The position numbers were made by a program, and so were the translations under genes. A DNA stretch of 64,000 nucleotides from Romanomermis culicivorax. Lineage: Eukaryota > Nematoda > Enoplea > Mermithida > Mermithidae. Of this stretch, positions 14,960-44,048 are shown piece by piece. Positions within the stretch are counted from its first letter, which is position 1; the number at the start of each line of letters is the position of its first letter. Below the pieces are notes generated by a model. That model saw nothing but the letters and a program-made list of their open reading frames with translations. It did no database searches and was not told the origin of the DNA. The stretch covers positions 310,001 to 374,000 of the forward strand of contig CAWUHX010000019.1 of assembly GCA_963922205.1 (NCBI GenBank), in the 5' to 3' direction.

Positions 14960-15425
14960 CAAAAATAGGGTGCAGCCAGAAGTCGAACCTGGGTTACCAG
15001 CATTCCAGGCTGATGTCATCACCACTAGACCAGCACCCCACGAGGCGAACCCAGATTAAGGTGCTCCCCTAGGCTGCGATTTTTTAGCACACTCCTGGCT
15101 GCACCCTATTTTTCCAAACTTATTTTCACTAAAAAAAATTCTATATAATTTTCATTTCTAAAAAGTTAGCAACTTCATTGGTGGGCAGTTCAAAAAGCAG
15201 CAGGTACGCTGCTACTTGTCAAGGGTTGTAGGTTCAGGACCACCAAGCATTGGAGTTATGTACTAAAAAATCATAGCCTAGGGGAGCACCTTAATCTGGG
15301 TTCGCCTCGTGGTATGGTGGTCTAGTGGTGAGGACATCAGCCCGGAATGCTGGTAACCCAGGTTCGGCTCCTGGCTTCACGCTATTTTTCAAACTTATTT
15401 TCACTCCAAAAAATTCTATATAGTT
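14960..15425. repeat. tRNA-derived foldback repeat, copy A
   Basis: A minus-strand tRNA-like segment (GTCGAACCTGGGTTACCAGC...CACTAGACCA, about 14975-15035) and a plus-strand one (TGGTCTAGTGGTGAGGAC...CCAGGTTCGGCTCC, about 15316-15370) lie in opposite orientation. Between them, about 15039-15090 is the inverted complement of 15259-15311. T-arm-like stems (CCAGG/CCTGG) and A/B-box consensus are recognisable, but acceptor pairing is not, so these are SINE-like heads rather than tRNA genes. The same family recurs at 20787-21118. Confidence 0.6.
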
Positions 15426-20786: not shown

Positions 20787-21118
20787 ATGGAATTTTTTGG
20801 AGTGAAAATAAGTTTGAAAAACAGGGTGCAGCCATGAGTCGAACCTGGGTTACCAGCATTCCGGGCTGATGTCCTCACCACTAGACCACCACACCACGAC
20901 TCCTGGCTGCACCCTATTTTTCAAACTTATTTTCACTCCAAAAAATTCCATATAATTTTCATTTCTAAAAAGTTAGCAACTTCATTGGTCGGCAGTTCAA
21001 AAAGCAGCAGGTACCCTGCTACTTGCCAAAGGTCGTAGGTTCATGACCACCAAGCATTGGAGTTGTGTGCTAAGAAATCGCAGCCTAGGGGAGCACCCTA
21101 ATCTGGGTTCACCTCGTG
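20787..21118. repeat. tRNA-derived foldback repeat, copy B
   Basis: GGAATTTTTTGGAGTGAAAATAAGTTTG plus GGGTGCAGCC at about 20790-20835 is repeated in inverted orientation at about 20900-20948, around a minus-strand tRNA-like core (CGAACCTGGGTTACCAGC...CACTAGACCACC). The tail to 21118 (GGCAGTTCAAAAAGCAGCAGG...GCCTAGGGGAGCACCCTAATCTGGG) matches 15183-15310 of copy A. It is a structured SINE-like family with at least two members here. Confidence 0.6.
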
Positions 21119-24775: not shown

Positions 24776-26193
24776 TGTCACATGCCGATCAATTTTACCC
24801 AACGTCACGTGGTTCACATCATGTTCATACTCAATGTTTTTTGCCACTGTTTGTTTTACAGTCACTTACTCTTATTTTTGCATTTCGATAATTATATTTT
24901 ACATGGGTTCTTGTGTATATTTTTGTGTTTCGTTTCTGTTTCATTTTGTGCTTTCATTTCTGTTGGGTTTTGTTATTTTCCGTTGCGCACATAGACTATG
25001 GTATGTAACCTGTTAGTTGGAATTTCGGCCAAGATAATCTCTATGAGCTCTTGGCCATAATTGGAGCATTATGTGCACCACCTATCAGTAAAAATTAGCA
25101 ATGTTTCATAAGGCGAAACGACTAGTTCGGGGATTCTCTCTAAAATACATTAATATGTTTAGCATGGAGAGTCAAACTCCCCCCAATGCTTAAGGTATTC
25201 CAACTGGAAAATGTCTTTGTGATTATAGGCATCTTGGGCAGCGATTTCCACTGCTGAAGTTAGCTTGGGCAATGTTAGCTCCACCCAAGGCATACTGTAG
25301 GTCTGTGCAGCCCTTTAAAAGGGTCTGTTTCGTTAGTTTTGCACTCATCTTTGGGCTTAAATCGTCATCCTTGTGTTTTAGCTTGCATCTTGCATCCATC
25401 GACTTTATTTTATATTAATTTACATATATTGTGTCCGCCGCCTTTATTTCAAATAAATTTGCATAGTACTTAGTGCTCATCACTGTGTTACATTACTGTA
25501 TCCCTGCATAGGAGTTACCCATTGTCCTTTCACTTAGCACTTGCCCCTCGCTCCATTCATGGACCACTTGCCTCGCCTGCCAGCCCGTCTACAGAGCATC
25601 CCTTGCCAAACCCAAATTGGACCGCCGTCACCCCCATTCCCATCGTCCCAGGATGCTTGAACCCTTGAACCTGTCGCCTCCCCACTGAGTCATAGTTGAA
25701 AAAAGGACTAGGTAAGTCTTCTCAATGGATTATTGTTATTGAGGGAATATTTGTGGGAACGCATCCCTAGTCAGTTTTCCCTTGAGAATCCCCTCAGTTA
25801 GAGTAGCACTTGAACCCCTCGGGTCAGGGCCAAAAAGGGGATCTTGGTTTACAATTGGGTCCCCTACAGTAGGCCATCCCACAAATGGCCTTGTCCTTCA
25901 CTCTCAGTGAATGGGGGTAGGGATTGCCACCCCTGACCCATAGGCGTTGTCCATTACTCTGCAGCAGAACCCAAGGACAGTACGGAGGTACCTTATAGGT
26001 TTTCCTATAGTCAGTACCAGCTGGGTTAGGTTCCCGAAGTAGATACCCAAACAGAGCCACCCAATGGGGTCACAGCATGTCACTCACAGTGACATGACCG
26101 TTTTTTCATAAATATGGTATGGGTTTTCCCATCAATGTGATTGGCCACAAATTCATTTAATGTGACATGGCTCCAAATCTACTTAATGTGACA
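24776..26193 (+). mobile_element. Solo LTR-like element, 1.4-kb family, copy 1
   Basis: The element begins TGTCACATG and ends TTAATGTGACA and is flanked by a perfect 4-bp duplication CTTG (24772-24775 and 26194-26197). It carries a promoter-like CCCTTTAAAAGGG near 25310 and AATAAATTTGCATA near 25455, in the order expected of an LTR. It aligns collinearly with 27597-29027. There is no ORF of note. A solo LTR is the simplest reading. A non-autonomous DNA transposon with a 4-bp duplication is possible, because TGTCACAT/ATGTGACA are inverted, but the ends share only these 8 bases. Confidence 0.7.
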
Positions 26194-27596: not shown

Positions 27597-29027
27597 TGTC
27601 AGGTGCCGACGAATTTCGTCAAATGTCACGTGATTCACATCACAATTTTTTGTTACGTTTTTCGTTACGTTTTGTGTTACAGTAATTTGCATCAATTTTG
27701 CATTTCACTTTTATAATTTTTACATGCAATTTATGTGTGTACTTTTTATGCTTCGTTTCTGTTTCTGTTTGCGCACTTTTATTTCTGTTTCGATTTATTA
27801 TTTTGATCGCACACGTAGATTACGGTATGTACCCACTAGTCAAGAATTTCTGTTAGAGATAAGCTCTCCGAGCTCATCCCTGTAATTGGAGCACAACGTG
27901 CACCTCTTATCAGTCAAAACTAGCGACGTTTCACAATGGGAAACGACTAGTTTGAAATTCTCACTAATGACATTCCTATGTTAAGCATGGAGAGTGAAAA
28001 CTCCCCCCAATGCTTAACATTGTGAACTGGAAAATGTCTATGTGACCATAGGCATCTTCTGCAACGATTTCCACTGCAGAAGTTAGCTTGGGGGAGTGTC
28101 AACTCCGCCCAAGGCATACTGTAGTTTATGGAACCCTTTAAAAGGGCATGTTTCGTTAGTTTGACACTCATTATTGGGCCTAACTGGTGTTGTGTCTTTT
28201 TAGCCTTGCGTCTTGTGTTTTGCTGTCGTCATTATTATTATATTGTTTTATTGTCGACTCGTTCGCCGCTCGTCAAATAAAATTTGCATATTTCTGCCTC
28301 CGGCCTCCTTATATGTTACCACTACAGTAACCCAATGGTAGGAACCCATCCCCGTCGCTGTTAATCGAAAAACCCCGTCACCCTCGCCGAGGAAACGTCC
28401 GTAACTGCCACCTGCCGATCAGCAGCTGCATTACCCCTATGCCAAATCGCCCGGATTCCGGTACCCGCTCCTTGCCATCCGTAGGACCCACAGTTTGACC
28501 CCCGAACCCGTCGCCCAGCCCGGAGTAGTTTGAGAAGAGGTTTAGTAAGTCTTCTCAGGGGTTATTGTTGTTGAGGGTATATTTGTGGGAGTCTCCCCTA
28601 AGCTAGTTTTCCCTTGGAAGCACCCTCAGTTAAGAAAGCCCTCAGACCCTTAAGGTCAGGGCCAATAAGGGGATTTAGGTTAACAATCGGGTCCCCTACA
28701 GTACGCCATTCTTCGAATGGCACCATCCCTCATTCTCAGTGAATGAGGACTAGGGATTGGTTGCCCTGACCCGGCCGCATTGTCCATTATTCTACAGCAT
28801 AACCCTAGGACAAGGCCGAGGTACACCATAGGTTTACCTGTGGTAGTACCAGCTGGGTTAGGTTCCGGAAACAGAGAATATTAACGGAGCCACCCCACGG
28901 GTCACAGCATGTCCCTTGCAGTGTCATGGTCGTATTTCCTATGGCATGTGGTATGGGGTTTCCCATCAGTGTGACTGATCACTAATTCAGTTAATGTGAC
29001 ATGGCTCCCACTCTGTTTAATGTGACA
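27597..29027 (+). mobile_element. Solo LTR-like element, 1.4-kb family, copy 2
   Basis: It begins TGTCAGGTGCC, ends TTTAATGTGACA, and is flanked by a perfect ATAT duplication (27593-27596 and 29028-29031). It is collinear with copy 1, sharing AACGACTAGTT, CATGGAGAGT, TTTCCACTGC, CCCTTTAAAAGGG, GGGTCCCCTACAGTA and GTACCAGCTGGGTTAGGTTCC. The two copies differ at many positions, so both insertions are old or come from diverged parents. Confidence 0.7.
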
Positions 29028-29811: not shown

Positions 29812-29815
29812 AATT

Positions 29816-30396
29816 TGTTATATCTGTCTTTGGGTCGGGGCGGTGATGATGCGGCGTGAGCAGGATTGGGATTCCGAGGTTGCGTCCTTAATGTACGTGC
29901 GTCCCACGCCCACGTTTACCCGATTACTTAATTACTAGTACTTAAACCCCGACAATAATTATCCCAACAATTAAAGAAAACCTAGTTTCTTTAATTGTCT
30001 CCCTTCTTTCTCACTAACTAAAAATAAAGGGATTCTCCTACCTATTTATTATTATACAATAACGTACGAAAACTTACGTGACCAAAACGCTACGGGCGAG
30101 ACGAAAATAATATGACAATAATGAATCTACTCCCACGCACGGGCGAGCAAAGACGAGAGGCGGCTAATGCGTACTAGTGGTGGCCGGCGGGGCACACAAC
30201 TAGTAAGGAAAAATAAAACACACGTAAAATATACGTAACGAAAAAAGGTGTAGAGAGAGACCAGCGCACGCGTACCGACGTGCGCTACAGTAAGATGGCC
30301 ACTGGTGGTCCGCGTTGCTCTCTCCACTTGCCACCTGCGGGCCTGTGACGCGTTTTGACAAATAATGAAAAAATCGGCGGAAAACACACTACAACA
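29816..30396 (-). repeat. 3' LTR of the giant element
   Basis: 581 bp. In element sense it runs from TGTTGTAGTG to ATATAACA. It lacks a 14-bp stretch present in the 5' LTR (near 43737-43750) and differs at two bases (tacccGatta, gagacGaaaat). Confidence 0.92.
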
Positions 30397-30410
30397 CCCC
30401 TCCCCCCTTG
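30397..30410 (-). other. Polypurine tract of the giant element
   Basis: The minus strand reads CAAGGGGGGAGGGG immediately before the 3' LTR, the expected plus-strand primer. It is almost identical to the TRIM tract at 7513-7526. Confidence 0.85.
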
Positions 30411-30805: not shown

Positions 30806-33800
30806 TCAATGGCGGCGGCGATAACGGGTGTCGGATGCAGAGCGGTGATTTCGTTGCAGATCGCGGCGGTCGCGTTCATTTCGTCGGTAGCTATCGTAGC
30901 CGTGGGGATCATACGGGTCGTCGTGATCATCAAAACGGACGTTACGGGAATAACGAGATCGACCGTAGTCAGAGGGATCCCGGCGGCGCGACGATGAGGT
31001 TGATGTTTGAGGTGGAAGCGGCGATAGCGGGTTCACACCGGGTGCTGGCAATTGAGTGGCAATTAACGACGGTTTGTCGGACGGCGTCCCTGTTGGCGGC
31101 AACGGTCGTGGTGGCAAAAGGTTCCACCGGGCAGAAAAGTCGTGCCGACGCAGCAGGGGCGCGGGGCGATCCGTCTCGCTGTGGTATTGCAAATAAATTC
31201 TTCGAATGTCGGGGATTTCGGGCGGCTGTGGAAACGGTGCGTAGCTCGGATAAGCCATCCAGCTGTCGATAAGTCCGACAGCGGTGTTATAGGCTTGGAG
31301 CAGGCACGAAGGATTATCCAGGCCGCGGGCTTCGTACAGGAAAAGAGTCAAGTGGGCGGTGTGAACGGCGTCAACGACGCCGAGCTCCTCGGCCCAAAGA
31401 CTGGCGACCCATTTCAATATCACTGTGGCAACGGCGTGCGAAATCGGTGGTTGCTGTTCTACGTATGAGGGGCGGTAGTGGTCGCGGAAATATTGGTACA
31501 ACGCCAGCGAAGCGTTCGTGGCGCGTATGTGCACGGGCATTGTGATGTGAATGCGAAGGCGCCCGAAAAAATTGATCAGCACCATCTCGTGCATTGTGCG
31601 TGGTGAGAAGAATTCAACGGCCGGGTCAATATGTGGCGGATAGCCCGGCGTGACAATCGTAACGGCGTGCGGCTGATCGGTAGTACGAAATCGCGTATAG
31701 TTCGGCAAGTGCGTAGCCTCGCTAGGCAACCGGGGCTTGATTGCTGGCGCGGAACTTGGTGGCAAGGGAACTCCAAGAACCGGTTTGGTGGTGATGATCA
31801 TTTGCGGCTGTTGGACCGCAGTAACCGGAGCCGACGTCGGGGCCGTAGGCGGCAGCGACGTGGTGTGGGTTACCGTGGTCGTTATGGCGGTTGTCGGAGC
31901 CGTAGGCAGCTGCGACGTTACCGTAGGCGTAGTCGAGGGTGTTGCGGGCTCCACGTCCATAGGAGGCGGCGGGAGCGGAGCTTTAAATTCATCTTTCGGC
32001 GGATTCTTTAGAGCTTCCAGGCGGCGCTGGATTTCGGCGTCTCGGTGCAATGGGCTAATATAGTCTGTTAATTTCGTAGGTGAACGGCGGAAGCCGTGGC
32101 GATAGTGTTCTTCGTAGAAACCCGTCGTGTGCACCTTACGGGTTTGTTCGCTCTGAGTACGATGCGGCGGTGCGTCATCGCGGCGTTCGTGTTGGCGGCT
32201 TTCCCTGCTGGTTGCTGGAGTTTGTTTCGTTTCTTTACGGTGGTGGTCATCACGAGAATGAGACTCGTGGTGTGAACGGTGGCTGTCTGGCTTGTGAGCA
32301 GGCGGCGGTAACGTTGCCGACGCTGCTGTTTTGGAAGAATCACGTTTGGGTTTCGGTGTTGACGTAGCGTGCGAAGAGCGTTCGGCTTCTTCGCGGGTTC
32401 TTTGTTTATCGCGTTGTTCATGGCGTCGAGTGGTACGCTCGCTGGGCGTTCGGCCGCGCTCAGCACGCGAAGTGCTGGGTGGCGGCGTACGCCATGTACT
32501 CGGTTCGTCCGATGTTTTCGTCTTGTGAGATTTGCGGTACGCTGATTCGTCCTGGAGCTGTTGTTTTCGTTTTATCGAATGTTCATACCGCCCGGGTCTT
32601 CGGATGGGATTACCATAGCGATCTAAAGCCGGCACGGACGTGCTGGATGCCTGTGGGGTTTGGGCATCCACAGGCGCCGTCAGCGGCGGTAGAATCGCTG
32701 GTTGCGGCGGTTGCGGGATCGTTTGCGGTTGCGTAATGACCGGCAGCGGTAACTTGGCCGGTGGTTGCGTGACGGGTTGGGCCATCGCGGTAGCCATTTG
32801 AGCTACTTGCGGGGCCGGGGCGATCAACGTCGGTTGCGGCAACAAAATTTGTTGTATTTGTTCTTTCAATGATTCGGGGAAATCTTTCCATTGGTGTTCG
32901 GGGAATAACATACCTGGCGGCGGTGGCGGAAAATGATGCGCGGTCAGTGCTGCGGCCAAAGCGTCCCATTGCGGAGCTGAAATAAACTGTTGCGAAAAAC
33001 GTACAGGAGCACTATACCTGGCTGCGGCAACGGTAGCAATAAGTGGAGGTCCCGGCAAAACGGCCGGCGTCGCCAAATATATTCGTGGATCCACGGCGGG
33101 TGCCGTGGTGACAGTCGCAGCGGCTGGTTCCATAGAGGCGACGTCCATAGACGTGGATTGATCCACCGTGCTTTCTTCGGGTATGTCAGTCAACATTTGT
33201 TCTGACGTCATTGTCTCGGAGTCAATCGCAGCGGGTTGGACGGGTGTGGACTCGTCCATTGGAGCCGGAGCGATGTTGGAAATTTCATCGAGCGTCAATT
33301 TCAGGAAATCGTTGATTTGCGTGGCAGTTGCGGTAATATCGGAAGGCGCGGGTACCATAGGAAGGGCCGACACGTCCATTGACGGCGGCAGCTTCGCTAT
33401 GTTGAGATCGAAGATTGGCGTTTCAAGTAGTTCATCGTCGGCGGGTTCAACTTCAACATCGATAGGGCGGTCGAGGAGTTCCTCGGCGGTGAGCGTGTGC
33501 ACCGAAGCGGTAGTCGGCATGGGGTACGCATACACCGGCGCGGGGAATGAAAGACGGTTTTGGTGGTCGATGAGCGCGATGAACGTTGAATAAAAATGGA
33601 AACGGCTGTGTGGATTGGCCGTATAATCGTTTTCATCGATTTCAACTTCTTCGACCGACCTTTCCATGTGGAAGTTTTCGTCAAACACGATCGGGCGTAA
33701 CGCGAAGCGGTTGCAGATGTACGTGCTTGGGTCGGCCGAAAAACTGGGTTCGCGTTCCGGAATGCGGTTCATCCAAGTCGTGAGAAGCGAATTGGGGTTG

Positions 33801-35605
33801 CCGTCGCTGCGGTACCACATGCATTCGTAGAACACGGCGCGTGTATCTGGCGTCATCGATTGCGCGTGGCGGAGGAGGACGTCGTTGACCCAGGCGTATT
33901 CCGCGGCGGAAAATGGTGAGGCTAGGAGCGCGGCTAACGGCATAAAAGACGTTAGCTTCCGGAACCATTCTCCATCAATCTGTAAAAAATTAAGGATGGT
34001 TGAAGGGTGATAACGATAATGGGTACCGTTATAAGTGCGCTCTCGTAGGGGTTGGTCGGCGGCTACGCGTTCGGTCCAAAGATCTTCGACTTCGTGGGGA
34101 AGCGGCGGCAAGTTGGGATCGTTGTAAGGCATACGATCGCAGACGGCCAACTTGTATATCGGTGAAAGCGGAAAGTTGAGCAGCTCGATGATTCGATGAA
34201 TAATATTGCTTTTCATGGCGGACGTGACGGCTGCTTGGAGACGTTTGGGATCGTCGAACACCGATTGTGGTTTTAGAGCCGGGTCTTCGTCGTCGGAGAT
34301 GTCTGGTGACTTGTTCCATTCGTCTTTCTGTTTCTTTTTCTTCTTTTTCGGCACTTTCGGAACGGGGAGAAGCTTCGGGTGAGTTGTCCGCGTCAAGGAT
34401 TTGACATCTTTGAAGCCGTTGGGAACCGTTCCTAAACAGAAAGACCGACCGTGGTCGGACGATGTGCAATCATACATAAAAAATTTATAAGCCGAAAGAA
34501 CTTCATCTCGCATGATTGCGGGCAAGGCCACTTGCGATGTAGTCGGGTAGATCCGGTTGGGGTAGTCGGGGGGCAAGACATCCGACAGCGCGACGTTGTG
34601 GAAAGTGGCGATGACGTACTCGGCGAGATGGTCGATTTCGGCGGCGTCCAACGAGTCGTGGGGAAACAACGCGGGCGCATTGTAGACCTCGGGGATGAAG
34701 CCGTAACGACCAAATGCCAAGAACAATAGCAGCGGATAGTAGGCGTCGAGGGCCGCGTATGCCAGGACGTCGGATTGTAGGAACGACGTTGTTGGATTGT
34801 TGAAAAAGCGTAGAGCGTGGGGAAAGCGTAAAGTGGGCTTTGACACGTCCAGCGCCCACATTGCCGAAACTGTGGCTTTGAGCGTGCGTTTTTCCGGGAA
34901 GAAACCGGTTCGGCGTGCCAACTCGTACAATGACGGAGATATGTCGATATTGCGAATGACGCGGTACGCGTCGAAGTGAATTGCTTTCACGACGGGATCT
35001 TTGTTCTTCTTTTGCCGGTCAGTGCGAAATTGAGTGCCCAGAAGCGCGTAGATTCCCGCCCAGTCGTCGGCTCCATCGAAAGAAACTACGATGGTGTGGT
35101 CGCCGTCGACTAGGGCGAAAAGCGCGGTCCAGTCTTCTGGGGTGGCGGTGAACGTTTCGAAGACGAACATCGTGCCATTCGGGAACGCGAGTTGAACGTA
35201 GCGGGGGTAACTAGACGCGTTGGGGTCGGCTGGCATTTGAACTGTGCATTGAAATTGTTTGAAATCGGCGGCCGAGATGGATTCGGTGTCAAAGCCGACC
35301 AGCGTGTAGCCACGGAAGTTTGGTGTGGGTTGGGCGGCCAAGGCCTGCCCCAAACTTCCGGGTGAAAGGAAAATCGGCGGCGGCAAGACGTTCGGGGGTC
35401 GCCCGTACATGGAAATGTACCACGACTCCAAATCGGCAACGCGAGTTAGGCGTTTGACGTTGTTTTCTAAACAAGAGCGAATGCGATACTCATCAATGAC
35501 ACATGGGACACCACGTCGAATGAACGACATGGGGTTTGAAGGATGATGTAAACATGAACGAAGAGGGAAGCGGTGTAGTGTTTTCGATTCGTTAGAGGTA
35601 CACAT
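30806..35605 (-). CDS. Accessory ORF with DEDDy 3'-5' exonuclease-like domain
   Basis: The first ATG in frame is at 35605 (1,599 codons); the frame is open from 35800. The N-terminal ~300 residues fit the RNase D/WRN exonuclease fold. Motif I is GFDTE (Asp 35288-35290, Glu 35282-35284). A motif II-like [10 protein letters not shown] follows (candidate Asp 35063-35065). A helix-rich [11 protein letters not shown] region precedes motif [12 protein letters not shown], with the Tyr-x3-Asp spacing of the DEDDy class (Asp 34745-34747). Next come an unknown folded segment, a long Pro-rich region, a basic Arg/Ser/His tract (about 32100-32590), a second helical region of ~180 residues (about 31150-31690) and an RD/RS-rich tail. 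The ORF lies downstream of integrase, where env would sit, but shows no signal peptide or membrane anchor. Exonuclease activity is inferred from motifs only, and motif II is atypical. Confidence 0.8.
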
Positions 35606-35818
35606 GCTTTGAGGCGGCGTTGGCTTGGGCGGCGATGTCACCTTGATGGGCGCACTTGGACAACTGGATCGGGCTACGATAGCGAGATAACGAGAGTTGT
35701 GGTATGCGGAAATCAAGGCAGCGGCCGGTTGTGGGCTGAGAAGGCCACAACTTGACGATGACGGGATCGCGGCGGCTGACCATGGAACTCTGACCCAAGA
35801 CTACAGAGGGGGAGAAAC

Positions 35819-36019
35819 TCATGGGGTCCCAAGCAAAAGCATGCAAGTATAAGCAGCAAAAGCATAAAATGAGAAAATACCGTCGCAGGCGAAACTTAAG
35901 TCGTTCTGGTGGGGCTGCTGTTCGGCCCAGCGGACGTAACGTTCGTTTACGTTTATCGATTCGCGATACGGCGGAGGGTCGTCGGCCGTTGAGGATGATG
36001 CGGTCGACGGCTTCGTCAT
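35819..36019 (-). CDS. Small ORF with PPPY motif and hydrophobic C-terminus
   Basis: 66 codons from the ATG at 36017-36019. A Ser/Thr-rich start is followed by DDPPPYRES, a PPxY motif of the kind that recruits Nedd4-type ligases in retroviral late domains, and the protein ends in an aromatic/aliphatic stretch that could insert in a membrane. It is in the same frame as the large accessory ORF, separated by TGA (35819-35821) and TAG (35801-35803). Expression would need a spliced or subgenomic RNA. It could be a chance ORF, since there is no homology to lean on. Confidence 0.35.
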   Translation of the reverse strand: MTKPSTASSSTADDPPPYRESINVNERYVRWAEQQPHQNDLSFACDGIFSFYAFAAYTCMLLLGTP

Positions 36020-36524: not shown

Positions 36525-39500
36525 CTATTGCCGGCGGGAAGTGTGGGGCCTGCGGGATCCACCTTCCTCGTTGTCAAATGCATTCTTTGCCGGTCGTGGG
36601 ATGAACGGTTTTAGACGCGTTATAGAGACGGTCTGCGGGCGGCCGGGCGCGTCGAGTGCGTCAATGGTAACAACGTTTTCGGCTGCGCGTGAAGCGTCCG
36701 TGATGAGGAAAGGCCCGATGAAGTCGGGTTGAATCTTGTTGGCTTTTCGCGTGTTGGTCAAAAGAACTAAGTCGTTGACGGCGAAGTCGCGTCTTCGCGC
36801 TTTGCGGTCAAAATATTCTTTGCTGGCGGCAGCTGCGGCATCGAGGTTAGCTTTGATCTTTTCGTGCATCTTGATTTGGGCTTGCGTTAGAATATGTTGA
36901 TAAGCGTCGTAATTCAACGGCAAGGTGAGGCGGCGGGCGCAGTCATAGTCGAAGGTGATGCGCGGTTCATATCCTCGTAATAAACTGAACGGCGAATGTC
37001 GTGTGGCTGTATGCGGCGTGGCGTTGTAAGCGAACACGGCGTAGGGCAGGTAACGCTCCCAGTTGTCGGGATCGTCGGCGGTGTACTTCTTGAGTTGGGC
37101 GATCAATGTTTGGTTGAAACGTTCGACCATTCCGTTGCACTGGGGGTGGTACGCCGTTGTTTTGACTTTTCGAATTTTGAGAAGTTCACAAATATCTTGC
37201 ATGAGTTTTGACGTAAAGCATCCACCTTGATCGGAAAGGAGGACAAGTGGGCTACCGTGCGTGAGGACGACGTTGTTGATAAAACATTCCACTATTGTTG
37301 AGGCTTTCTGATCCGGTATCGGATGCGCGGATACGAATTTCGTAAAGTAATCCTGAAAAACAATAACGTAGGGACGCTTCTCACCTACTGGCAAAATATT
37401 GACGATGTCGGTTGCCACGATTTGGAATGGGTGTTTGGGTTGAATTGGCAACAATGGCGGAGGCGGTGACGTGCGCGGCGTTGTTAGTTGGCAAATTTTA
37501 CAGGTTTTGATCCAATCCCGAACGTCCTCTTCCATGCGGGGCCACCAAAAGTGAGCTTTAATGGCGGCTAGCGTCCGGTTTGTCCCTTGATGATTCAAAA
37601 TTTTGGCGCCGTGGAATTGGTGAAGAGTTTGGTCGACCATGGAGGCAGGTACGACTAATTGCTTGACATCTTTGATTTGCCGGTATAAAAGTTGATCTTC
37701 GAGGAAGAAAATCGGCGGGTGTTTGGCGGCGTTATCCATTTTGAGAGAGGTGATGATTCTCGTTATGGCTGGATCTGCGGCTTGAGCTTCTAAAACTTCT
37801 TCGTGAGCGGCGATCGTAATGACTTCGGCCGGAGGCGGTTCGTGGTCGGCATCCTTAGGCATTGAATTAGAGAGTGTGGGTGAACTGATGGTCTTTCTCG
37901 TCATTGCACGGGTGATGGCGTTGATTTCGGCATCGACCTCCGTGGATAGTGAATCCACTGCTGGGCGTATTTCCGGTACCGTTAGGTCGCTTTCCGTAGT
38001 TGCACCAGCAGGGTGAAAGTTTTCACGGAAGATCTTTGCGGTCAAGTTTTCAGCGTTCTGGATCGGGCATTTGTCGCGGTCATCTTTCCTAGATAGAAAA
38101 TCAGCGCAAGCGTTATCCTTACCCTTAACATATTCCACTTTGTAATCGTAATCTTGTAAGCTGATCGCGAAGCGCTGGAGTCGTGAATTGCCGTGTTTCT
38201 CGTCTTTGAGCCATTCGAGCGGCTTGTGGTCGGTGCGGACGATAACTTTCTGGCCGTACACATAGTGGCGGTACATCCGGAAGCCGTATACAATGGCGAG
38301 GCATTCACGCTCAGTTGTATTGTAGCGGGTTTCGGCATCGGTGAGTACGCGACTATTGTAGGCGATGACCCATTGATCTTTTTTGTTTTCTTGATACAAA
38401 ATTGCTCCGATGGCGGTCGTACTAGCGTCGGTTTGAATAACGAATTGAGCTTTGCCATCGTAGACGGGATAGCGGAGAAAGGGCGACGACGTAAGGGCTG
38501 TCTTGATGCCTTTGAATGCGGCGTGGTGTTCATCCGTGGCGAAATATTGGGCGTCTTTGCGTAGAAGTCCGTACAAAGGACTGGACAAGGTCGCCAAATT
38601 CGGAATGAATCGCTTGCACCATTGAACTAGACCTAAAAAACTCTGCATACCTTTTTTAGTCTTCGGAAATTCATATTCGGCGATCGCTTTGACTTTCTCG
38701 GGATCGGCGGCGATTCCGCGGGCGCTAAGAAGATGTCCCAGGAATTTGACTTGCGGCGGCAGAAACTCGCATTTGTCGGGTCGAAGCGTAAGGTTAGCAG
38801 CGCGGAGGGCGTCAAAAACGATTTGAAGGTGTTCCAAATGCTCTTCAAACGAATTCGAAAAAATAATAATATCGTCTATGTAAAGGAGGCAAATTTTCCA
38901 AATGTACGGGCGGAGGATTCGTTCCATTAGACGTTGGAATTCGGCAGGTGCGTTTTTCAAACCAAAGGGCAAAACTTTGAAACGAAACAAACCTTCTTGG
39001 CAGATGAAGGTTGTTTTGTCACGGGAGTCGACGTCGAGGGGTACTTGCCAATACCCAGCTTTGAGGTCGAGCGTGGTGAAGAATTTTGCGTGTCCCATTG
39101 CGTCCAAGTAGTCGTCAATGCGCGGGATTGGGAATTTGTCGCTTGGCGTAACATCATTGATTCCGCGGTAGTCAACAACGGGTCTCCACGAGCCGTCTTT
39201 TTTCTTTACCAAAAATAGCGGTGCGGCCCAAGGTGAGCGGGATGGTTCGATAAAATCGTTGTCAAGCATTTCTTGAATATGGCGACGTACAATCGGTCTT
39301 TGTTCCATCGCGGCGCGGTAATAATGGCGGGAAACTGGTTTCGCGGTGCCGGTGTCGATGCTGACGGTCAATTCGCTAGTGATGGTTGGTTTATCGCCGG
39401 GGAGACTGAAAACATCGCAGTGCTGTCGGAGCATCCTGAGGGCTCTCGCTTTTTGCGCGGTAGAAACGTACGTCTTTTCCGTCATTTTGTTCAGGGCGTA

Positions 39501-39614
39501 TTCCAGCTTTTGTTGTGCGGTATTGCCTGGGAATGACTTGTCCAATGCGGCCGGTTCGTGGTCGGTTATGTCGCGGTCGGCGGCGGCGGTCGCTATCTGA
39601 CAATCGGCGTGGGT
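36525..39614 (-). CDS. pol: pol: reverse transcriptase, RNase H, integrase
   Basis: Open in one frame from just after the TAA at 39615-39617 to a stop at 36525; no obvious ATG start. Numbering from the TTG at 39545: RT has LDLKAGYWQ (Asp160), the LPFGLKNAP block and YIDD (222-225). RNase H has QTDAS (Asp373), TERECLA (Glu413), [10 protein letters not shown] (Asp439) and ADFLSR. Integrase has an H-x-H/C-x2-C zinc motif (HQFHG...NHQG, CKICQ) and a full D713, D772, E808 triad, then a C-terminal domain with the GPFLI and [10 protein letters not shown] strands. All catalytic residues are present. It copies the element RNA and inserts the cDNA. The likely product is a Gag-Pol fusion by recoding at the upstream stop, or a stop-inactivated copy. 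Confidence 0.92.
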
Positions 39615-42008
39615 TTAGGAATACTCCAGTGTGTGCTTTGCCATCGCAATGAGTTGATTTGGTCGGAGTTTGATACTGTTCGGCGTATTGTTGATGAAAA
39701 GGAGCGGACAATGGCCGTTGGTGATGTTGACCACTGCGGTTTCGACTGGGAGCTCTGCGGCAACGTTGTCTGTGGCGAGTGGTTGTACAATCACGTCGGG
39801 CACTGTTGCCGATGTTGTGGGAAAAACGCTACTATTGACCCATTGTTGGCAGTGCGGCGAGATCGAAACGGAAACTTGGGCGACGAGAAAAATCGGTTCG
39901 GCGAGCTCAGTAACCTCCAACCGCCTAGGGGGCGGTTGGTGTGGACTAGGTTGAGCCTGCGGTATCGGTTGTTCGACTTTGATTTCTTCTGGTTGGCTAA
40001 AAATATCAGACTTATCATCATAACAACTTACTCGTTCGTCCTCGGGTATTTCTTCTAAAACATTGTCGTTAGCGGCGTTGAGAAACAATTCCGTTTGCGG
40101 GCGGATCGAGGCGATCACCTTGAGCGGCAGTTTAACGTCTTGAATTTCGATGTAATTGTCTTTGAAATTTAAAATGGCGTGGATATCGGGGTGCGCGAGG
40201 AAATCGGTTCCGATGATGAATTGATCGTTTCCGTCGTCGTCAAGGATTACGCATTTGATCATGTGCTCTCCGAAGGCGGATTCCATTGTGACAACTACCG
40301 GGCCGTGAGCGTTGACTACGGCGCCGTCGGCTACTTTGATTTTTCCACAAATCAGGAGTTGGAGCGATTGCTTGTCGAAAGCGCGTTTGACTAATCCTGA
40401 TGAGAGGACGGAACATTGGGCACCTGTATCGATGAGCGCGTGTGCTTTGACGGCTCCAATTTTGATGGGGATTTGAAAGGCTCTCGTAGAAGCGTACTTG
40501 CGAACAAACGATTTGGAAGATGGCGTTAGATTATCAATTTGACAAACGGACGAACGAATATGACAGGGATCTTGAAAAGCGCGGCCTGTTGCGTTCCAAC
40601 GGACGATGCCGGGGCTGACAATCGGCGCGGCGGAAGCGATTTCTTTGGATGGAACAACCATATTGGCCGCGGACGTTGAATGATTGTTAACGCGTGTTTC
40701 GAGCGCAGGTATGGGCGCGGTGTTTGGTGCCGGAAGGGGGGGCAGGGTAAATTGCATTTCTGAAGATTGAGAACTAGCGCGCGATGAATCCGTCGGCGTT
40801 GTGACATACGGAGCCGGTACCGCGTTGTAATGAATATGTTGTTCCCACGGCGCCGGAAATTGGTGGTTCGGGTAGACGGCGTAGGTATTCTGAACAAAAT
40901 CATTTGGGCGTTGTATAGAGTTACCTTCATAGAAATGGTTTCGCGCGCCGCGGGCGTAGTTCCCTCCTCGTTGGGGCGGTCCTCCACGGCGGGGTCGCCA
41001 ATCGCGTTGTCCACGGACGTCGTTTGAATTGTTTCGGAAGTCAACTTGCCGTGGTTGAGCGGCGTAATTTGAGCGATTTGGTTCAAGTAGGGCTGATTGT
41101 TGAGCGTTTTGCCGTTTGAGCCAGACGCAATCTTCTGTGTTGTGTGTGCGGGATTTGTGAGCGTCGCACCACAGACCTGTAGATTGCGTCGTGCGTGCGC
41201 GGTCTCTGCTGGCGGATCGGTCGAAGCGGTTTGCGTGCGGCTCTCTGTTCTGGGATGGATGGCGTGGGCTTTGTTGCCTATTGTTGTGTACCGTTTCTTC
41301 AGGGCGTTGTCGAGATTTTCTTTCTTCATAGTCGCCGTCGTATCGTTGAATCAATTGTTCCAGAAGCATCTCTGTGCGCGGCGGCTGCGGCGGCGGTGGC
41401 TCAATTGCTTGTGGTTGGAAAGAGACGAATTTAGTGGGCTGCATCGCCGGGTTTTGCGTCCTGCGGTCCATCGAGGGAGAGCGCTCGCGGTAGCGGTTTT
41501 GAGGACGGTCCATGCTGCGGCAGCGTTCAAAACGGCGGTCAAACGGTTGCGGCGACTTCGGAGGTGGTGCATCTTGATCGGCTTGATTTACCAGAATGGG
41601 TCGTTCCGCGGTTCCGATTTCGGCCTTAGTTGCGTTGAGGACACTACGGGCTTTGGCTACGGCGTCGGCCAGTTGTTGAACATTTGTGAAACCCTTTGCT
41701 TGTTCGCCAATTGTGAGTTGATAGAAAACAGGCATTTTGGTCAAAAAGGTATCAATTACTTGTTTATGCCAGAAAGTTTGATCTTCATGCTGATACAATA
41801 GTTGTACATAAGTCATCACCTTACTCAGGAATGCGGCGGGTTCCTCTCCGGCTTCTGGCGTGATTGACGCGAGTTCGCGTTTAAGAGTCATCGGATTGCA
41901 ATCGGGCGCCAACTGGAACATGAGCAAATGTTTGGCGTCTTCATACCGCGTCATATCTTGGATCATATCGCTCGGCGTATCGCGGGTAAGTCGGCGGAGG
42001 GCACTCAT
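39615..42008 (-). CDS. gag-pro: gag C-terminal part (capsid, zinc knuckle) and aspartic protease
   Basis: 797 codons from an ATG at 42008, in the same frame as both neighbours. Residues 1-130 continue a Ty3-type capsid domain that starts before the upstream TAG. A basic, Arg/Pro/Gln-rich linker follows, then a CX2HX4HX4C knuckle (C281, H284, H289, C294) for RNA packaging. A Gly/Arg stretch and a low-complexity region lead to a retropepsin-like protease: ALIDTGAQ (DTG 527-529) and FIIGTDFL (598-604). A ~180-residue tail with acidic and Pro-rich segments ends at TAA 39615-39617. In a working element this would be part of the Gag-Pro precursor. The ATG at 42008 is probably internal, because the capsid homology begins upstream of the stop. 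Confidence 0.88.
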
Positions 42009-42029: not shown

Positions 42030-43253
42030 CTAGCCGAACTCATTTTCCAGTCGTATGAAGAAGCGTAACAGGCGTTTGTTTGTTGCAGCGCCGTCGATTA
42101 TCAGCGGATGCATATTGTCGACGATTGTTTTGATGCGGCTATCTTCCTCACAATGAGACGTGCGCGGCATGTCGTACCGAGGGTGCGGGTGTTCATAATA
42201 ATCCTCGGGTGGATAATCTGAAAAGCCAAATTGGTTTGCCGCGGGCGGTGGGCGTCTTTGAAGCGCGGAGCGGTGTAAATCTTCATCGGCGCGCGTATTG
42301 CGGGCGAATTCGTTATTATATAAGGTATCCGTCGACGGTGCTTTGGGTTTGACTTGGTTTGGTAGCCTGCCAAAGACTGGAGCCGGTTCAGTTTCACGGA
42401 GAGTTTCATTAGGGATATAAACATCTCTTGTTTCCTCGCCGTGAAACCATGAGGACACCGGCGGCGGTCTTGGTGTAGGCGGATTACGCGCGTGCGTCGC
42501 GGCGGCGGTTGTGGAAATCAAGTGTTGCATTTGCTCGGCGAGCGCGGCGAAACGCGCGTTAGTGGCTTTTGTTTGTTCTTGAATTTCGCGTTGAACGCGT
42601 AATTGCTGGGCTTGGAATTGATCGGAGACGGCACCGATAATTTGATCGATGGTTTGTACCGTGGGGACATTGTTGGTTATACGCGCGGCGGCGGTGTTGA
42701 GTTGTTCCAGCGCGTCGCGTGCTTCAATTCGAAAATTTTGGACTTCGTTGGCGTTTGCGATAGCGAGACTGCTGCGGTGGTCGTTCGCTGAAGCACGGGT
42801 GGCGGCTGGGGCTTGCGGTGGTTCGATATTGACAAAGGATTCGGAAGAGTCGGTTCTGGCGACAATTTGGTCATCATTATTTCGAGCCGGCGCGGGCGGG
42901 GGCGGCATTTGCGATGCGGGCGGCGCGTTTAGGCGATTTTCGGCGGCGGCATGAAGGTTTTGGTTTACAAGCCGCGGAGTTTGGGAAATATTCGTCGCCG
43001 CGGTTGCGGGAAATAGCGGTGCTTGCGGCTGTGCCATCCCGTCCAGCGCGGGAGTGCTGAAATTAGACAAGGGTGGGTTATGGGGCGGGAGACTTACCGT
43101 GGGTACCGCTGTCGATTGCGTAATATTTGACGGTCGCGGCAACATCATCTGGTCAAAACTTAAAGCGCGGCGTGCGGCTGTGGCGGCGTTGGGAGAACTG
43201 GAACGCGACGGAAATCGAGTGAAGTCCGGCGGTGTGTGGCTTACCGTTGGCAT
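42030..43253 (-). CDS. gag: gag N-terminal part, ended by an in-frame TAG
   Basis: The first ATG of the frame is at 43253, 137 bp inside the 5' LTR boundary. The product is Pro/Ala/Asn-rich and mostly disordered, with a helical stretch around 42560-42740 (long Gln/Arg-rich helix, probable matrix or coiled-coil region). It ends in the beginning of the capsid domain ([12 protein letters not shown]) and is cut by TAG 42030-42032. The same frame continues without shift into the next ORF, so this is one gag with a nonsense codon inside the capsid domain. A stop at that point serves no obvious regulatory purpose, so mutation is likelier than programmed readthrough. Confidence 0.85.
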
Positions 43254-43371
43254 CTTTTTTCTCAAGGTATAATAACCTCGTTTGTACCCTTTGGCGCAGC
43301 TACGGCGGGGTCGAATTTTGAAGTCTTTGAATTCTTCGGATGCAACGCAACAGCGGGGAGCGGCAACGTAC

Positions 43372-43388
43372 AATCCAAACGGTCACCA
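43372..43388 (-). other. Primer binding site of the giant element
   Basis: One base after the 5' LTR the minus strand reads TGGTGACCGTTTGGATT, starting with the TGG that pairs with a tRNA CCA end. The first ten bases equal the TRIM site. The tRNA is not identified. Confidence 0.75.
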
Positions 43389-43389
43389 G

Positions 43390-43984
43390 TGTTATATCTG
43401 TCTTTGGGTCGGGGCGGTGATGATGCGGCGTGAGCAGGATTGGGATTCCGAGGTTGCGTCCTTAATGTACGTGCGTCCCACGCCCACGTTTACCCAATTA
43501 CTTAATTACTAGTACTTAAACCCCGACAATAATTATCCCAACAATTAAAGAAAACCTAGTTTCTTTAATTGTCTCCCTTCTTTCTCACTAACTAAAAATA
43601 AAGGGATTCTCCTACCTATTTATTATTATACAATAACGTACGAAAACTTACGTGACCAAAACGCTACGGGCGAGACAAAAATAATATGACAATAATGAAT
43701 CTACTCCCACGCACGGGCGAGCAAAGACGAAAAAGGCGTGGTGGGAGGCGGCTAATGCGTACTAGTGGTGGCCGGCGGGGCACACAACTAGTAAGGAAAA
43801 ATAAAACACACGTAAAATATACGTAACGAAAAAAGGTGTAGAGAGAGACCAGCGCACGCGTACCGACGTGCGCTACAGTAAGATGGCCACTGGTGGTCCG
43901 CGTTGCTCTCTCCACTTGCCACCTGCGGGCCTGTGACGCGTTTTGACAAATAATGAAAAAATCGGCGGAAAACACACTACAACA
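43390..43984 (-). repeat. 5' LTR of the giant element
   Basis: 595 bp, TGTTGTAGTG...ATATAACA in element sense. It carries the 14 extra bases absent from the 3' LTR. Its outer edge is 64 bp from the stop codon of the host protease gene. Confidence 0.92.
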
Positions 43985-44048
43985 AATTCCATTCCTACCA
44001 TTCCACATCCAAAAGCTCCACTTTTACTGAAATCTATTGTCGAAACAG

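What the first reader, a model, noticed from the sequence alone, without database searches (positions are those of the whole stretch)
30806..35605. Ty3/gypsy element carrying a DEDDy exonuclease-like ORF
Downstream of integrase, where env or nothing is usual, there is a ~1,600-codon ORF with GFDTE, a motif II-like segment and AYAALDAYY at RNase D/WRN spacing, plus Pro-rich, Arg/Ser-rich and C-terminal helical regions. A captured 3'-5' exonuclease in an LTR retrotransposon would be unusual. It could process cDNA ends, trim RNA, or counter host small-RNA silencing (nematode MUT-7 belongs to this nuclease family). The role is inference; the motifs are seen. Motif II is atypical, so loss of activity is possible.
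Basis: partly seen in the sequence, partly recalled or inferred. Interest (0 to 1): 0.88.

Follow-up and report, generated by a model that had tools for sequence, protein, structure and literature searches.

The report
Retrotransposon carrying an exonuclease gene
A jumping element in a mosquito-parasitic nematode carries, behind its usual genes, a large gene that looks like an RNA- or DNA-trimming enzyme; a similar arrangement has been described in rotifers, and here selection appears to preserve the gene, so it probably serves the element in a way not yet known.

Summary
Confirmed, with corrections. A young Ty3-type element (LTRs 29816-30396, 43390-43984) carries a 1,600-codon gene behind integrase on the minus strand. 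All five DEDDy residues are present, motif II included. The ORF alone gave no usable Pfam, PDB or AlphaFold result; the assignment rests on family C of the same genome, which matches the ORF (tblastn 1e-10 to 2e-7) and Pfam PF01612 (1.5e-7). A third family, B, also has a DEDDy ORF. Of 80 PF01612 matches I read 24: all B or C, 20 with pol alongside. ORF3 is under purifying selection (pN/pS 0.12; exonuclease 0.08). Assembly size and scaffold count equal those of Romanomermis culicivorax v2. DEDDy ORF3s in rotifer LTR elements were published in 2017: a new variant of a known kind. Role inferred: a spliced accessory exonuclease, perhaps countering siRNA silencing.

The parts
43390..43984 (-). 5' LTR (595 bp, TGTTG...AACA); 2 substitutions in 581 aligned bases and 14 gap columns against the 3' LTR
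29816..30396 (-). 3' LTR (581 bp)
43985..43988 (.). target-site duplication AATT, one side
29812..29815 (.). target-site duplication AATT, other side
30397..30409 (-). purine tract next to the 3' LTR (likely polypurine tract, inference)
42030..43373 (-). first part of the gag-pol frame; ends in a stop that the 8 other copies read do not share
39615..42008 (-). second part of the same frame, with the aspartic protease
36525..39545 (-). reverse transcriptase, RNase H, integrase (same frame)
35881..36019 (-). ORF3 exon 1 (139 nt, 46 codons plus 1 nt); 139 nt in 28 of 28 copies; pN/pS 0.10 in this frame (45 codons), about 2 in the other two
   Evidence: resembles, by eye, the N-termini of R. culicivorax gene models P0014 and P0017 printed
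35467..35880 (-).
30806..35466 (-). ORF3 exon 2, with stop; the two exons together are exactly 1,600 codons including the stop
34682..35314 (-). DEDDy exonuclease domain, residues 135-345 of P0001 (D143, E145, D218, Y320, D324)
30806..31039 (-). Arg/Ser-rich C-terminal tail

Best explanation
The ORF is a third gene (ORF3) of a young Ty3-type LTR retrotransposon, most likely of Romanomermis culicivorax. Sequence evidence, not RNA, shows a two-exon gene for a protein of about 1,599 residues: a short N-terminal exon, a DEDDy 3'-5' exonuclease domain with complete catalytic residues, and long further regions with a lysine run and an Arg/Ser-rich tail. Shown: the conserved gene structure, purifying selection, and homology through family C to PF01612. 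Inferred: it is an active nuclease; since it is encoded apart from Gag-Pol it works as an accessory protein in the cell rather than as a core particle enzyme, trimming RNA 3' ends. The single purpose I think most likely, at about 35%, is to degrade or shorten host siRNAs or silencing intermediates aimed at the element.
For: Homology: P0001 against family C loci by tblastn, 22-24% identity over 208-305 aa, E 1.4e-10 (L042), 2.8e-9 (L041), 1.8e-7 (L045), in a search space of four loci; a profile of family A finds C frames L041 and L045 at 1.9e-8 and 2.1e-7 (Z set to 400). Profile-profile: E 2.8e-5, probability 74; with a larger C profile E 0.0016, probability 16, score 31.7 against at most 23.1 in 60 column shuffles. 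L041 (C) matches PF01612 at 1.5e-7 and L016 (B) at 1.4e-10, above Pfam's cut-off. L016 matches a WRN exonuclease chain at whole-sequence E 5.5e-4, though neither of its two stretches is significant alone. Catalytic columns of A, B and C coincide in one alignment. Selection: pN/pS 0.121 overall, 0.079 exonuclease, 0.04 for shared variants in the exonuclease; gag comparator 0.064 (100 codons, 9 copies). Splicing. Host: PMC4323106 (passages only) reports absence of piRNAs and PRG-1/Piwi in R. culicivorax and the same distribution for HENN-1; that siRNA 3' ends are therefore unprotected is my inference.
Against: No direct Pfam hit for this ORF: only DUF4350, below cut-off; of 22 members of its alignment one reaches PF01612, at E 0.25. 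No PDB sequence match at E<=1, none with the family profile that is not chance-like, none for L041. Both AlphaFold models were unusable and Foldseek gave no match at E<=0.001. Family B is not found from this ORF by tblastn at E<=1; hhalign A-B probability is 8. Three other alignments misplace motif I of family B. Eight of 28 copies carry stops in ORF3. One 19-residue window, on motif III, has a hydropathy of 1.72, a little above the usual membrane cut-off of 1.6 (recalled). There are no transcript, protein or activity data, and no direct evidence for the silencing role.
Confidence: 0.75

Rival explanations
1. The exonuclease acts on the element's own nucleic acids: it trims the 3' end of genomic RNA or cDNA, or removes mismatched 3' ends during reverse transcription.
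For: DEDDy enzymes act on RNA and ssDNA; processing of the element's RNA 3' ends is the first suggestion in the rotifer paper (PMC5408684). ORF3 constraint is of the same order as that of gag.
Against: ORF3 is apart from Gag-Pol with its own intron, so incorporation into particles would need another mechanism; most Ty3 elements do without it (general knowledge, recalled). In five family B copies the integrase-like frame looks relaxed (pN/pS 0.61) while the exonuclease does not (0.045).
Confidence: 0.3
2. A catalytically dead, RNA-binding derivative, like Maelstrom or EXD1.
For: Such derivatives occur in animal small-RNA pathways (cited in PMC5408684).
Against: All five catalytic residues are kept in family A, the three departures being in one copy each; the motifs are kept in families B and C.
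Confidence: 0.1
3. An envelope-like or structural ORF3 whose exonuclease motifs are chance.
For: A position after integrase and spliced expression are typical of env (general knowledge); no direct Pfam or fold match; one hydropathy window of 1.72.
Against: Significant similarity, across all three motifs, to family C, which is Pfam-positive; the best hydropathy window lies on motif III. Signal and fusion peptides were not tested.
Confidence: 0.05
4. A recent capture of a host exonuclease gene, carried along without function.
For: Host DEDDy genes exist in animals (general knowledge).
Against: Purifying selection in A and B. Divergent DEDDy ORF3s sit in three Ty3-type families of one genome, and the A and C integrases are 48% identical against 32-37% to B. 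Database hits were R. culicivorax, 59 of 59 and 107 of 107, and three of them carry retroelement Pfam domains in the listing (P0033, P0045, P0121). The searches are word-limited and may miss distant host genes; host genes among the 56 PF01612 matches that I did not read were not sought.
Confidence: 0.05

Closest known systems
DEDDy ORF3 of bdelloid rotifer LTR retrotransposons (Juno1, Juno2, Vesta2, Vesta5; Rodriguez, Kenefick and Arkhipova 2017, PMC5408684, parts 1-3 of 5 read plus passages)
   Same: LTR retrotransposon with a DEDDy exonuclease ORF behind pol; several lineages of one genome carry it
   Different: Nematode host; an intron in ORF3 (the word intron does not occur in that paper's main text); many copies; purifying selection shown here, while that paper reported no significant departure from neutrality for the env-like and GDSL ORF3s it sequenced (DEDDy ORFs were not among them); rotifer elements carry dUTPase and a DEED variant. 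The length of the rotifer DEDDy ORFs is not given in the parts read, and sequence kinship was not tested
Terminons (rotifer Athena Penelope-like elements with DEDDy ORFs; PMC6431247, passages only)
   Same: Retroelement carrying a DEDDy exonuclease
   Different: Penelope-like elements at telomeres, not LTR elements
RNase D / WRN / Rrp6 / MUT-7 exonucleases (PF01612)
   Same: Catalytic residues in the same order; family B matches WRN, Rrp6 and mut-7 homolog chains at whole-sequence E 5.5e-4 to 0.05
   Different: Family A itself is below Pfam detection; no other known domain was found in the ORF
Burro giant gypsy-like elements of planarians (PMC6431247, passages only)
   Same: Large Ty3-type element with extra coding capacity
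   Different: No DEDDy ORF is mentioned in the passages seen

Membership tests
Ty3/gypsy LTR retrotransposon | Paired LTRs with TG...CA ends and a short target duplication | tested here: met
Ty3/gypsy LTR retrotransposon | Domain order PR-RT-RNase H-integrase | tested here: met
Ty3/gypsy LTR retrotransposon | RT phylogeny inside the Ty3 clade | not tested
   no tree was built
DEDDy exonuclease (PF01612) | DxE, D and YxxxD motifs in order | tested here: met
DEDDy exonuclease (PF01612) | Direct profile match above the cut-off | tested here: not met
   for family A. Met for B and C. A is linked to PF01612 only through C, so it is described as a divergent relative by transitive homology
DEDDy exonuclease (PF01612) | RNase H-like DEDD fold | tested here: inconclusive
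   mean pLDDT 41.4 and 43.5; no Foldseek match at E<=0.001
DEDDy exonuclease (PF01612) | 3'-5' exonuclease activity | not testable with these tools
   needs protein
Rotifer DEDDy ORF3 (Juno/Vesta) | DEDDy ORF downstream of integrase in an LTR element | tested here: met
Rotifer DEDDy ORF3 (Juno/Vesta) | Sequence kinship with the rotifer ORFs | not tested
   no rotifer sequence in hand; protein searches returned R. culicivorax only
Env (fusion glycoprotein) ORF3 | Signal peptide, transmembrane anchor, fusion peptide | tested here: inconclusive
   hydropathy scan only: best window 1.72, on motif III; signal and fusion peptides not tested
Catalytically dead DEDD derivatives (Maelstrom, EXD1) | Loss of catalytic residues | tested here: not met

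The most novel reading that the evidence does not exclude
Three Ty3-type families of a nematode without piRNAs keep a DEDDy exonuclease as a dedicated counter-silencing factor that erodes the unprotected 3' ends of host siRNAs: a transposon-encoded silencing suppressor that works by exonucleolysis, kept by selection even where a neighbouring integrase-like frame is relaxed.
Probability: 0.25. Interest if true: 0.88.

Novelty: new variant of a known kind. Interest (0 to 1): 0.62.

Why it matters
In the papers found here, exonuclease ORFs in retroelements were described from rotifers, and there selection was not shown for the ORF3 types that were tested. Here a family with many copies gives a clear signal of selection, so the enzyme probably does something for the element. 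Since R. culicivorax is reported to lack piRNAs (PMC4323106, passages), whether a transposon enzyme attacks siRNAs becomes directly testable. It also shows that an enzymatic ORF behind integrase can escape domain searches, and that parts of it have entered databases under host-gene names (P0005, P0041).

Tried and rejected
Direct Pfam and PDB searches with this ORF or its alignment gave nothing usable. The full-length protein search had no hit at E<=0.001 among 7,988 scored candidates; the N-terminal piece was needed. Two AlphaFold jobs and two Foldseek searches were uninformative. Viral contigs: no confirmed relative of A or B. Phage records: none for A. Alignments A4, A6 and A7 misplaced motif I of family B, so B was left out of the second AlphaFold alignment. 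A larger C profile lowered the A-C probability from 74 to 16; both are reported. Checking the species through gene models P0036 and P0041 did not work: the P0041 matches that I can place are ORF3 copies, and one search was unanswered. The host name rests on assembly size and scaffold count and on the protein hits.

Rejected: a start at the ATG at 35605. Codons 1-83 of the open frame have pN/pS 0.71, against 0.10 in exon 1 and 0.146 in codons 84-200.

Not done: RT tree, tRNA primer identity, rotifer comparison, RNA mapping, and sorting of all 80 PF01612 matches. I read 24: the 12 best, cut out by the tool, and 12 that I chose; they are not a random sample.
Full report
What is there. The window lies in a genome of 359,112,060 bases in 595 contigs. 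The long-read Romanomermis culicivorax v2 assembly has 359.1 Mb in 595 scaffolds (PMC10879605, passages only), and the protein relatives found are from that species (59 of 59, 107 of 107). The element runs on the minus strand from the LTR ending at 43984 to the LTR starting at 29816, with AATT on both sides; the LTRs differ by 2 substitutions in 581 aligned bases, plus 14 gap columns. [quoted passage not shown] ORF3 lies behind them.

Gene structure of ORF3. The stop-to-stop frame is not the gene. I compared 28 copies (29 were matched; one was not fetched). Codons 1-83 look nearly unconstrained (pN/pS 0.71). A stretch further upstream, 36019-35881, is 139 nt in 28 of 28 copies, has no stop, and has pN/pS 0.10 in one frame and about 2 in the other two. 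It ends at a GT, and the ORF resumes after an AG at codon 84; both are invariant in 28 of 28, with 412-414 nt between the exons. By eye, gene model P0014 of R. culicivorax has the same junction and P0017 the same first exon. The two exons give exactly 1,600 codons including the stop. No RNA was seen.

Selection. Mean pairwise pN/pS (uncorrected Nei-Gojobori counts over all pairs of 28 copies, which are not independent) is 0.121 for codons 63-1636, 0.079 for codons 130-340 (exonuclease), 0.061-0.068 for codons 1330-1560 and 0.22 for the tail. Variants shared by copies give 0.09 overall and 0.04 in the exonuclease; singletons, which include decay after insertion, give 0.32 and 0.27. Insertions and deletions inside the ORF are multiples of three; the one exception, a single base in 17 of 28 copies, is placed at the last base of the stop codon, an alignment edge. 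Eight of 28 copies carry stops. A 100-codon piece of gag in nine copies gives 0.064. Synonymous divergence varies along the gene (0.02 to 0.22), which suggests exchange between subfamilies, so the ratios are best read as orders of magnitude.

Is it a DEDDy exonuclease? This ORF alone cannot be placed: Pfam gives nothing above cut-off, PDB sequences nothing credible, and the structure predictions failed (mean pLDDT 41.4 and 43.5), so the Foldseek searches, without a match at E<=0.001, carry no weight either way. The case rests on relatives. A PF01612 scan of the genome gave 80 matches at E<=0.001 of 119 scored. I read 24 of them, 12 best and 12 chosen: 20 are one family (B), 4 another (C), and 20 of the 24 have integrase or RT sequence in the stretch held. 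Family C matches PF01612 at 1.5e-7 and the window ORF at E 1.4e-10 to 1.8e-7 over 208-305 residues in a four-locus search. The integrases of A and C are 48% identical, against 32-37% to B. Profile comparison A-C gave E 2.8e-5, probability 74, but 0.0016, probability 16, when more fragmentary C members were added, still above all 60 column shuffles. In alignment A3 the catalytic columns of A, B and C coincide, and the motif II Asp is D218; in three other alignments motif I of B was misplaced. A and B are not significantly similar on their own. I take family A, at about 90%, for a divergent DEDDy member that shares an ancestral ORF3 with C.

How it may work. The five catalytic residues are kept in 28, 27, 27, 27 and 28 of 28 copies, which argues for activity. 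ORF3 lies apart from Gag-Pol with its own intron; it has a lysine run behind the nuclease domain and an Arg/Ser-rich tail. Its best hydropathy window (1.72) lies on motif III. These are features of a nucleic-acid-binding accessory protein (inference). R. culicivorax is reported to lack piRNAs and PRG-1, siRNAs are reported to act against transposons across nematodes, and HENN-1, which protects piRNA 3' ends, is reported with the same distribution as PRG-1 (PMC4323106, passages only). A 3'-5' exonuclease against siRNAs would fit, at about 35%; processing of the element's own RNA or cDNA ends follows at about 30%. In five family B copies (L016-L020) the exonuclease has pN/pS 0.045 and the integrase-like frame 0.61, a hint that ORF3 is kept for its own sake. 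The sample is small, one of the five (L020) has stops behind the exonuclease, and synonymous divergence differs between the regions (0.16 and 0.06).

Novelty. The rotifer paper (PMC5408684, parts 1-3 of 5) reports DEDDy ORF3s in Juno and Vesta LTR elements, acquired at least twice, so the kind and its presence in several lineages of one genome are known. A review of 2017 (PMC5718144, passages only) also names rotifers for it. What I did not find in print, by the searches, is a nematode case, an intron in such an ORF3, or selection on one. These searches cover open-licence PMC papers only.

Noticed in passing
window 42030-42032 and 39615-39617: The gag-pol frame of the window copy is interrupted by two in-frame stops; the first is absent from the 8 other copies read, so copies without it exist. 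The second was not compared.
   Followed up: partly
L016-L020, integrase-like frame (about bases 1-900) and exonuclease (1357-2061): In these five family B copies the integrase-like frame looks relaxed (pN/pS 0.61) while the exonuclease is constrained (0.045).
   Followed up: partly
L052: A family B exonuclease runs on in frame from an RT frame, as if an internal deletion had fused RT to ORF3.
   Followed up: no
L010, L020, L048: Three family B copies share a stop at the same codon (235 in the script's count) just behind the exonuclease.
   Followed up: no
P0005, P0041: UniRef entries of R. culicivorax named DNA-directed DNA polymerase and Autophagy protein 5 match the ORF3 exonuclease region; P0041 matches genomic ORF3 copies over residues 2-296 of 297.
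   Followed up: partly
window 14967-15038, 15312-15382, 20824-20895: Three tRNA-Ser(GGA)-like genes; the third overlaps an inverted repeat with 65-base arms, 97% complementary.
   Followed up: no
window 25202-26193 and 28025-29027: Diverged direct repeats about 2.8 kb apart, 74-90% identical, near the element.
   Followed up: no
ORF3, codons 84-130 and 1560-1636: Synonymous divergence among copies is 0.02 in the first stretch and 0.22 in the last, which suggests recombination between subfamilies.
   Followed up: no
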